Shown here: positions 35,343 through 40,896 of the stretch, piece after piece
How positions within the stretch are numbered: position 1 is the stretch's first letter
How the letters are laid out: each line of letters opens with the position of its first letter
NCBI GenBank assembly: GCA_033762255.1
Contig: JANRLT010000021.1
Coordinates: forward strand, 186,001 to 250,000
DNA from: Pirellulales bacterium
GTDB lineage: Bacteria > Planctomycetota > Planctomycetia > Pirellulales > JALHPA01
Direction: 5' to 3'
Length of the DNA: 64,000 bases
Position numbers and translations under genes: made by a program
The notes under the pieces: model-generated
What the model was told of the DNA's origin: nothing
Databases searched by the model: none
Seen by the model: the letters and a program-made list of their open reading frames with translations, nothing else

Positions 35343-35741
35343 ATGCGTGTCGTCTTTGTCTGTGTCGAAAATTCCAACCGGAGCCAAATGGCCCAGGCGT
35401 TTGGCAAATTGCATGGGTTAGAGGCCTACAGCGCGGGTTCGCGCCCATCCGGAAAGGTGAACCCCAAGGCGATCGCCGCCATGGCTGAACTTGGCTATGA
35501 CCTTTCCACCCACCAGTCAAAATCGCTGGCCGATCTGCCGGATGTGGACTTTGACTACGCCGTGACCATGGGCTGCGGGGACGCGTGTCCCCATCTGCGG
35601 GCGCAGCACCGCCTGGACTGGCAAATTCCGGATCCGCGAGAAATGCCGCCCGAGGAATTTGCCAAAATTCGCGATGAAATCGGTCGATTAGTGGAGCAGT
35701 TGGCGTCTTCAACTAAAAATGAGGTGCAATCATGTCGGTAA
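35343..35741 (+). CDS. arsC: Arsenate reductase, low-molecular-weight phosphatase type
   Basis: Cytoplasmic enzyme that reduces arsenate to arsenite, using a thiol relay. At 132 residues it fits the thioredoxin-coupled LMW phosphatase-like ArsC family. The catalytic loop is CVENSNRS (C7, CX5R), and the later cysteines C78 and C82 (GCGDACPH) can form the redox disulfide. DPRE (97-100) provides the general acid Asp. The stop overlaps the start of arsM by 10 bases, which implies a shared message. The order gives a two-step route: arsenate to arsenite, then methylation. No arsR or efflux pump gene is in the window. Confidence 0.9.
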
Positions 35742-36625
35742 CCGAAATTGTCCAGCTAAAATATGGTAATGTCGCCAAAAGTGGCTTATCCAGCGATAAC
35801 GCCGGCGTCCTTGCCATCGCCCAGGCGTTTGGCTATAGCGGGGAAGAGTTAAGCTCGATCCCGGCGGAAGCAAACATGGGCCTGTCCTGCGGCAATCCCA
35901 CGGCGTTTGCCAGTTTAAAGCCAGGGGAAACCGTGGTTGACCTGGGCTGCGGCGGGGGATTGGATGTTTTCTTGGCGGCAAAAAAAGTTGGTCCGACCGG
36001 CCGCGCCATTGGAATTGATATGACCCCGGCGATGCTGGACTTGGCCCGACAAAATGCAGTCAAGGGAGGCCTGGAAAATGTGGAATTTCACTTGGCGGGA
36101 ATCGACAAGCTACCCTTGGCGGACCAGACCGTGGATTGCATCATTAGCAACTGCGTGATCAATCTGGCGGAGGATAAACCCGCGGTCTTTGCGGAAATGG
36201 CCCGCGTGCTGAAACCCGGCGGGCGGCTGGCGATCAGCGATTTAGCTCTTTTAAAACCGTTACCTGCGGAGCTGGCTGAAAATTTAATGGCGTACGTGGG
36301 TTGCATTGCCGGTGCGATACCCGTACAGGAGTATGAAAGCGGGTTAAAGGTCGCGGGCTTTGCCGAAGTGCAGGTCGTGAATACCGGGGCCGACCTGAAT
36401 GCGTATGCCAGTCTCGAAAACCAGTCCGGGTGCTGCTCGCCGGGAATGTGCTGCGAGCCGGAATCCTCGGTCGAGGATTCCAGCGTTACGCCAGCGAGCT
36501 TGACGGTAATTAGCACCGAGTCGGGCAATTCCGAACTGCATCGCGAATTGTCCGATCTGTTGCGGCGTTACAATGTGAACGATTTTGTGGCCAGCGTGCG
36601 GGTGTATGCGATCAAGCCCGCGTAA
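35732..36625 (+). CDS. arsM: Arsenite methyltransferase
   Basis: SAM-dependent enzyme that methylates arsenite to methylated and volatile arsenicals. The SAM motif is [13 protein letters not shown] (about 68-80). The three conserved cysteines of ArsM are present: C53 (GLSCGNP), C141 (ISNCVINL) and C191 (YVGCIAGA). The 50-residue gap between the last two matches studied algal ArsM. A Cys-rich patch ([14 protein letters not shown], about 231-244) and a C-terminal segment ending in VRVYAIKPA follow. It is translationally coupled to arsC. A bidirectional-looking hairpin lies downstream. Confidence 0.93.
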
Positions 36626-37662: not shown

Positions 37663-37905
37663 TTAAATCCAACGCGGAATTCTGGCGAATTCCGCTACCT
37701 CATTGTTAGCTAGATATTCAAATGGGGTATTATCGAGTTGAATGGGCACAAATCGACCCAAGTTCCGAATGATCCGCGCATGGTTGAGCGAGCCCCCCGG
37801 CATGGCGAAAATCTCGCCCCGATAAAACTGGTGTTTCATCGTCGCGGATTCTTCGCTATCCAGGTATTCTTGGATCGTAAATTTACGGAGGGGAGCCGTG
37901 GACAT
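37663..37905 (-). pseudogene. Truncated Uma2-family gene
   Basis: An 80-residue remnant of the intact neighbour at 38079. MSTAPLRKFTIQEYLDSEES and HQFYRGEIFAMPGGSLNHAR align with MSTQPIQKYTVDEYLAIEAT and YQFYQGEIFAMAGGSLSHTR. Homology stops near residue 66. The last residues (VAEFARIPRWI) are encoded by a GTAG hairpin repeat at 37674-37698, so the gene appears to have been cut off by that repeat. The nuclease core with the PD-(D/E)xK residues is missing. Confidence 0.75.
37674..37698 (-). repeat. GTAG-headed hairpin, GCGGAATTC stem
   Basis: On the minus strand GTAG precedes a 9-bp perfect stem (GCGGAATTC / GAATTCCGC with a 4-base loop). It forms the 3' end of the truncated Uma2 gene. Confidence 0.65.
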
Positions 37906-37963
37906 GGAGGGAGCTTTTTGTAATGGAATAATCAGTAGCAGTTTAGCCATTTGTAGTAGTATG

Positions 37964-38037
37964 AACCGTGGGCTAGCGCCCGGCGGCTGATTTCGCCACA
38001 GCAACAACCTACAGCCTCCACGCGCTAGCGTCCGGTT
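37964..38037. repeat. 74-bp repeat, copy 1 (type D)
   Basis: Differs from the copy at 38707 by one base. The ends form imperfect 26-base inverted repeats (about 20 of 26 match), built on GCTAGCGC. It lies upstream of the truncated Uma2 gene. Confidence 0.9.
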
Positions 38038-38078
38038 GAGTTCATCACAATATTCCTAACAGCTAAACTGTTACAACA

Positions 38079-38651
38079 TCATGATTCAAAGACCACCCGG
38101 TCATACAAATCGCGCAGCGGTAATTCACAGGAAACACAGGAAAGCTCGATCCTGGCGTCCAGTCCATCTATACAGCGCAACTTCCAGCCCTCATGTTCTG
38201 TCTTTACATAATGGTCGCAGTGCGGCTCAAACTGCGAGATCAAAACATAGTCACAAAGCGTGGCAATCCTCTGGTATTGAATAAATTTTTGCCCCCGGTC
38301 AAAGTTTTCCGTCGAAGGGGATAAAATATCAAAAATCACTCGCGGATTGACAAGCGAAGGAGTGTATCGCCCATCCAAAAACGGTTCGCCGCACACAATC
38401 AATCCATCGGGATAAGTGTACAAGCTGGGGGAGCAATAAACGCGCATCCCTTCCCCGAGATATTCACACCCGGTATCGCGTAATTCCTGATTTGCTAAAC
38501 AATGCAAGTTGTGTGCGATGCGGGTATGGCTTAGGCTTCCCCCAGCCATCGCAAAAATTTCACCCTGATAAAATTGATAGCGCAATTCGGACGTCGCTTC
38601 GATCGCCAGGTACTCATCAACGGTATATTTTTGGATGGGTTGGGTGGACAT
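38079..38651 (-). CDS. Uma2 family (DUF820) putative nuclease
   Basis: 190-residue protein of the Uma2 family, which has a restriction-endonuclease-like PD-(D/E)xK fold and is common in cyanobacteria and planctomycetes. The pattern is complete: YTVDEYLAIE, YQFYQGEIFAMAGGS, TYPDGLIVCGEP with the catalytic Asp, and VIFDILSPSTENFDRGQKF with the second acid and Lys. The biological role of the family is not settled; mobile or defence-related functions have been suggested. It is followed by a truncated copy and both are preceded by a 74-bp repeat, so the unit was duplicated. Confidence 0.85.
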   Translation of the reverse strand: MSTQPIQKYTVDEYLAIEATSELRYQFYQGEIFAMAGGSLSHTRIAHNLHCLANQELRDTGCEYLGEGMRVYCSPSLYTYPDGLIVCGEPFLDGRYTPSLVNPRVIFDILSPSTENFDRGQKFIQYQRIATLCDYVLISQFEPHCDHYVKTEHEGWKLRCIDGLDARIELSCVSCELPLRDLYDRVVFES

Positions 38652-38706
38652 GTTAGGCTAAAAAAAAGTTGAACTTGGGTAACTGTTTAGCCGTTTACGG
38701 CACAGA

Positions 38707-38780
38707 AACCGTGGGCTAGCGCCCGGCGGCTGATTTCGCCACAGCAACAACCTACAGCCGCCACGCGCTAGCGTCCGGTT
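38707..38780. repeat. 74-bp repeat, copy 2 (type D)
   Basis: Single-base difference from the copy at 37964. It lies upstream of the intact Uma2 gene, so each Uma2 copy carries one. Confidence 0.9.
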
Positions 38781-38933
38781 TATTCTTAACATTTCAAATG
38801 ACTAAACAATTAGGAACTTGGAAATTACCCCCATTTTACTACGGGATCTCGAATGTGGGGATACAAATCCCGACTTACCCACATCCAACGCAGCGTATCG
38901 GCGTCGTTAACCGGCCGGGCCGTACTGACGCGT

Positions 38934-40466: not shown

Positions 40467-40685
40467 AGTCCGCGCAACTCCCAAAGAAAGTGAAATCCCC
40501 TCGTGAAAACACGACCGAAGTAGGGGGATTATAACTTGCCAGGAGGAAAACCCGCAAATCGAGTTAAGAGCAGACCGAAATGTGCACAATAAATTTGTGA
40601 TTATAAATACTTTTTTGTGTTTTTTTCTATTCTTGCGGCCATTTGCCTTATTTTTGACTTTTACAGCTCAACTCATTGCCCACTA
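40467..40685. other. Intergenic region upstream of xylB
   Basis: T-rich DNA that should hold the xylB promoter. CTATTCTTGCGGCC near 40627 is repeated near 40844, on both sides of the inverted-repeat element. No coding frame. Confidence 0.4.
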
Positions 40686-40813
40686 GTGCTTTGTCAACAA
40701 TTTATTATCGGATAAGCCTTAGCGCGCTACCCCACATTTAGAGGAACAAGAACCGTGGGCTAGTGCCCAGCGGCTGATATGCCTAACTCGGATCTTTAAC
40801 TTTGACAAAGCAC
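40686..40813. mobile_element. 128-bp MITE-like element with 12-bp terminal inverted repeats
   Basis: GTGCTTTGTCAA (40686-40697) and TTGACAAAGCAC (40802-40813) are perfect inverted repeats. Inside lies a partial type-D repeat (ACCGTGGGCTAGTGCCCAGC at about 40752). No ORF. Whether it moves is inferred from structure only. Confidence 0.45.
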
Positions 40814-40896
40814 GAGTTCACTACTTTTTAGTATTTCTTGCTATTCTTGCGGCCTACAGCGTTGTTGTAATTTTTGCGGCTCCGACTTTTTGCACG

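What the first reader, a model, noticed from the sequence alone, without database searches (positions are those of the whole stretch)
37663..38780. Duplicated Uma2 unit, each with a 74-bp repeat
Two Uma2 genes (one truncated) are each preceded by a 74-bp sequence differing at one base. Proteins differ far more than the repeats, so the repeats are either recently copied or homogenised. The repeat has imperfect 26-base terminal inverted repeats.
Basis: seen in the sequence. Interest (0 to 1): 0.6.

Follow-up and report, generated by a model that had tools for sequence, protein, structure and literature searches.

The report
Mobile hairpin repeat beside Uma2 genes
The 74-base repeat next to two Uma2 genes is one arrangement of a palindromic mobile repeat scattered through this bacterium and other Planctomycetota; it has no special tie to Uma2, although its two copies here have become nearly identical to each other.

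Summary
The two 74-mers (37964-38037, 38707-38780; 73/74) are pairs of 28-nt palindromic arms in inverted orientation. Each sits inside a larger MITE-like insertion: copy B 38679-38813 with exact 8-bp duplications (GAACTTGG), copy A 37935-38074 without one. The arm occurs at 71 places in the genome (control 7), almost always outside ORFs, and near none of the other 14 Uma2 genes. Near-identical arms occur in about 20 other planctomycete assemblies, but patchily. Arms come in two stem subtypes with compensatory changes, and also sit tail-to-tail inside a second, ~132-bp MITE with unrelated ends (TAGTGCTTTGTCA). Copies A and B are 99% identical in the 74-bp core but 55% outside it, whereas copy B's shell matches another locus at 82%. 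The truncated Uma2 ends at a different element, a GTAG-type REP (37674-37698; 70 places genome-wide). This is a REP/BIME-like palindrome family in MITE shells, not found in the papers searched but of a known kind. No cognate RAYT or autonomous transposon was found.

The parts
37964..38037 (+). 74-mer copy A: inverted pair of palindromic arms (L arm 37964-37991, R arm 38010-38037 reversed)
38707..38780 (+). 74-mer copy B, same organisation
38679..38813 (+). MITE-like element B, 135 bp, terminal inverted repeats GTAACTGTTTAGCC / GACTAAACAATTAG, carrying copy B
   Evidence: alignment with C72 (82% shell identity) and C60; sequences
38671..38678 (+). left 8-bp target duplication GAACTTGG of element B
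38814..38821 (+). right 8-bp target duplication GAACTTGG of element B
37935..38074 (+). MITE-like element A, 140 bp, terminal inverted repeats GTAGCAGTTTAGCC / AGCTAAACTGTTAC, carrying copy A; no clear target duplication
   Evidence: inverted repeat I1
38079..38651 (-). full-length Uma2 gene (190 aa), neighbour, not part of the element
   Evidence: PF05685 E=2.8e-22
37663..37905 (-). truncated Uma2 reading frame (80 aa; about 122 C-terminal residues missing)
37674..37698 (-). GTAG-type REP hairpin (GTAGCGGAATTCGCCAGAATTCCGC) at the breakpoint of the truncated Uma2; a different repeat family
   Evidence: (70 places, control 0)
40684..40815 (+). second MITE class (132 bp, ends TAGTGCTTTGTCA) carrying an L arm at 40755

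Best explanation
The 74-mer is a REP/BIME-like dimer: two 28-nt palindromic arms (5' ATCAG-CCG-stem-CGCTAG-stem-CGG-TT) in inverted orientation, forming the core of a short non-autonomous transposable element (MITE). Two such elements lie in the gaps upstream of two neighbouring Uma2 genes. SHOWN: genome-wide dispersal, extragenic location, inverted-repeat ends, 8-bp target duplications at three of the four copies with both ends recognisable, compensatory stem changes between the two arm subtypes, and identity of copies A and B confined to the core. INFERRED: a DDE-type transposase acting in trans on the outer ends moved the elements, and gene conversion (or transfer of the core alone) between the two copies 743 bp apart made the cores identical. 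The repeat has no functional link to Uma2; any effect on the genes would come from the strong RNA hairpin it would put in a shared transcript.
For: L arm: 71 places in the own genome against 7 for the reversed pattern; R arm: 21 against 0. Arms are inside ORFs of >=100 aa in 2 of 71 cases against 78% for random positions, mostly in co-directional or convergent gaps. Full elements at C72, C60 and in the window show 8-bp flanking duplications: AAAAA[A/G]TC, AAAAATGA, GAACTTGG. A-B identity: core 73/74, shell 36/66; B-C72: core 67/80, shell 51/62; A and B alone share a 6-nt spacer deletion. In 117 distinct arms from many genomes, stem pair 12-21 is G-C in 68 and C-G in 44 (113/117 paired, shuffle maximum 76), and pair 11-22 is G-C in 64 and A-T in 37 (106/117, shuffle maximum 91). 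The same arms sit tail-to-tail in a second MITE class with different ends.
Against: No autonomous transposon with either kind of end was found in the genome, and no RAYT gene examined is flanked by the arms, so the mobilising enzyme is unidentified. Element A has no recognisable target duplication. The compensatory changes reflect two arm subtypes and may be few events.
Confidence: 0.78

Rival explanations
1. An ancestral [repeat + Uma2] unit was duplicated in tandem and the repeat has stayed identical while the genes diverged.
For: Both repeats lie at nearly the same distance from their Uma2 start codons, and the 743 vs 746 nt spacings link repeats and genes.
Against: The sequences immediately outside the 74-mers are only 55% identical, and copy B's shell is closer to the C72 locus (82%) than to copy A. 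Element B has its own exact target duplication, absent from A. Three other tandem Uma2 pairs lack the repeat.
Confidence: 0.12
2. The 74-mer is a regulatory site of Uma2 (operator, attenuator or target of the Uma2 nuclease).
For: Both copies are directly upstream of Uma2 and form strong RNA hairpins (-41 and -47 kcal/mol).
Against: About 70 arm sites genome-wide with none near the other 14 Uma2 genes; the arms occur in many genomes.
Confidence: 0.04
3. The paired arms are themselves the mobile unit (a REPIN moved by a tyrosine transposase) and only secondarily landed inside MITE palindromes. This is a variant of the best explanation, not fully exclusive of it.
For: Identity of A and B begins and ends exactly at the arm boundaries. 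The arms occur alone, in both pair orientations, in arrays, and inside two unrelated MITE shells. REP dimers inside longer palindromes are described (PMC3733652).
Against: The foot is ATCAG rather than GTAG. None of 10 Y1_Tnp genes in this genome nor 30 in carrier genomes has the arms within about 1.5 kb. G028 carries the arms with no detectable Y1_Tnp gene, at 81% completeness.
Confidence: 0.3

Closest known systems
REP sequences / BIMEs / REPINs (GTAG and CGTC superfamilies, Di Nocera 2013, PMC3733652)
   Same: 20-40 nt imperfect palindromes, many copies, extragenic, dimers in both inverted orientations made of two stem variants (heterodimers), arrays, sometimes set inside longer palindromes.
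   Different: 5' foot is ATCAG, not GTAG or CGTC; no RAYT gene found flanked by them; near-identical arms shared between different orders of Planctomycetota.
Bacterial MITEs
   Same: About 132-142 bp, terminal inverted repeats, target duplications, no coding capacity, dispersed.
   Different: The conserved part is the internal palindrome pair, while the ends belong to at least two unrelated types (GTAACTGTTTAG with 8-bp duplication; TAGTGCTTTGTCA with a possible TA duplication); the parent transposons are unknown.
Class 3 TnpA (Y1) elements of Planctomycetes, Acidobacteria and Proteobacteria (PMC6006769)
   Same: Found in planctomycetes, with atypical secondary structures in many copies.
   Different: Their reported foot is CnGA 5' of the hairpin; no such gene was found linked to these arms.

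Membership tests
REP / BIME | short imperfect palindrome in many dispersed copies | tested here: met
   71 L-arm places vs 7 control; 21 R-arm places vs 0
REP / BIME | extragenic | tested here: met
   2/71 inside ORFs >=100 aa vs 78% for random positions
REP / BIME | hairpin stems kept by compensatory change | tested here: met
   pairs 11-22 and 12-21 far above shuffles, but two subtypes only
REP / BIME | inverted dimers and arrays | tested here: met
   own genome: 26 of 29 neighbouring pairs are inverted
REP / BIME | GTAG or CGTC foot | tested here: not met
   consensus foot ATCAG in 117 distinct arms
REP / BIME | cognate RAYT flanked by the repeat | tested here: not met
   10 own and 30 other Y1_Tnp loci without arms; own RAYT-type genes have hairpins of other sequence
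MITE | terminal inverted repeats | tested here: met
MITE | target-site duplication | tested here: met
   8 bp exact in two elements, 7/8 in a third, absent in element A
MITE | autonomous parent transposon with the same ends | tested here: inconclusive
   none found in this draft genome

The most novel reading that the evidence does not exclude
A third large REP superfamily (ATCAG-tagged, loop CGCTAG, two complementary stem subtypes), so far seen only in Planctomycetota, that lacks a RAYT and spreads by riding inside, and switching between, MITE shells of unrelated transposon families.
Probability: 0.3. Interest if true: 0.5.

Novelty: new member of a known kind. Interest (0 to 1): 0.3.

Why it matters
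It shows that a repeat that looked gene-linked is a dispersed mobile palindrome. It also adds an apparently undescribed REP-like family in a phylum where few are characterised, and it gives a clear case of two nearby copies homogenised over the palindromic core alone. If the arms really move between unrelated MITE shells without a RAYT, that bears on the open question of how REPs without a dedicated transposase spread.

Tried and rejected
Rfam search of the region: no match. Plasmid search with an arm pair: no match. Autonomous element with GTAACTGTTTAGCC ends: the two widely spaced pairs found on C65 and C60 have no target duplication and differing ends; rejected. Autonomous element with TAGTGCTTTGTCA ends: only pairs about 132 bp long. 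RAYT flanked by the arms: none. GTAG-REP membership of the arm: rejected, because GTAG is not at the foot and appears only within some stem variants. Intrinsic terminator: no T-run hairpin at the 74-mers; the GTAG REP at 37674-37695 scores as terminator-like. Literature: no paper with the core of the arm sequence apart from an unrelated human promoter paper.

Full report
OBSERVATION. The two 74-mers are real: 37964-38037 and 38707-38780, 73/74 identical. Both lie just upstream of minus-strand Uma2 frames. The proteins are 49% identical over 68 aa. The terminal inverted repeats are as described.

WHAT THE 74-MER IS. It is two palindromic arms in inverted orientation. Arm L reads AACCGTGGGCTAGCGCCC..CGGCTGAT. 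Arm R, reverse complemented, reads AACCGGACGCTAGCGCGT..CGGCTGAT. On the other strand both are ATCAG-CCG-stem-CGCTAG-stem-CGG-TT. In 117 distinct arms from this and other genomes the loop and feet are nearly fixed, while the stem switches between GGG/CCC and ACG/CGT, with pairing far above shuffles. This is compensatory change, though possibly from few events because there are two subtypes.

DISTRIBUTION. In this genome the L arm has 71 places (control 7) and the R arm 21 (control 0). Arms avoid ORFs (2/71 against 78% for random positions) and favour co-directional and convergent gaps. A Pfam search finds 15 Uma2 genes, not counting the truncated one. No arm (up to 3 mismatches) was found in the stretches fetched around the other 14. 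It is patchy: only 5 of 392 genomes drawn from the phylum, this one included, have the exact 16-mer. Of 39 genomes in the relatives search only this genome and G028 match the element, and G028 matches only in the arms.

ELEMENT STRUCTURE. Around the window 74-mers and their closest relatives lies a 135-142 bp element with ends like GTAACTGTTTAGCC. Element B (38679-38813) is flanked by GAACTTGG on both sides. The C60 copy has AAAAATGA on both sides, and the C72 copy has 7 of 8 matching bases. Element A (37935-38074) has good inverted ends but no duplication. A second class, about 132 bp with ends TAGTGCTTTGTCA, holds the arms in the opposite, tail-to-tail arrangement. It is present many times in this genome, including window 40684-40815, and in other genomes. 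Its ends are consistent with a TA duplication as in IS630/Tc1-type elements (general knowledge), but no empty site was seen.

HOMOGENISATION. A and B share 73/74 in the core and a 6-nt spacer deletion found in no other aligned copy, but only 36/66 in the shell. B and C72 share 67/80 in the core and 51/62 in the shell. Core identities of A or B to every other copy are 0.68-0.84, so 0.99 between A and B stands out. Some truncated copies (C39, C67a) also show high core and low shell identity, but because part of their shell is missing. Gene conversion between copies 743 bp apart, or replacement of the core alone, is the simplest account. An old tandem duplication alone is not enough.

THE TRUNCATED UMA2. 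Homology to Uma2 stops a few nucleotides before a GTAG-type REP (37674-37698), whose sequence encodes the last residues of the frame. That REP family has 70 places in the genome (control 0). The missing 3' two-thirds of the gene therefore relates to a different repeat from the one reported. That the REP caused the deletion is inference.

MOVERS. The genome has ten Y1_Tnp (RAYT-type) matches. Several are flanked by hairpins of other sequence. None is flanked by these arms, nor are 30 in carrier genomes. No autonomous element with either kind of end was found.

COMPARISON. The arms behave like REP/BIME units: heterodimers in both orientations, arrays, and dimers inside longer palindromes, all described for other REPs (PMC3733652). 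They fail two features tested: the GTAG/CGTC foot and a flanking RAYT. So they work like REPs inside MITEs, but they are not filed as GTAG REPs.

LIMITS. The window's genome is a 72-contig draft with no name given; its placement among Planctomycetota rests on the kinship labels and the record titles of carriers. Figures of PMC3733652, which lists REP families of R. baltica, could not be read, so an earlier description of this family there cannot be excluded. ORFs were called by a simple longest-first rule, not by a gene finder.

Noticed in passing
window 37674-37698: GTAG-type REP (GTAGCGGAATTCGCCAGAATTCCGC) at the breakpoint of the truncated Uma2; 70 places genome-wide, some in tandem arrays.
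   Followed up: partly
window 40684-40815 and 50606: A 132-bp MITE of the second class with an L arm, and a further L arm variant.
   Followed up: partly
G000 C35:8008/8656, C17:82427/83012, C70:91511/92174: Three other tandem Uma2 pairs, spaced 585-663 bp, without the repeat.
   Followed up: partly
L009, L010, L013, L094; L011 and L016: RAYT-type genes with strong flanking hairpins of different sequences, suggesting several separate REP systems in one genome; those at L011 and L016 are next to GTAGCCGTGGGCGCAAGCCCACGG-like repeats.
   Followed up: no
L147, L134 (Roseimaritima sediminicola); G000 C21:178035-178310: Arrays of the arms in alternation.
   Followed up: no
window 35343-36625: Two adjacent plus-strand genes that look like a low-molecular-weight arsenate reductase and an arsenite methyltransferase (by eye from the translation only).
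   Followed up: no
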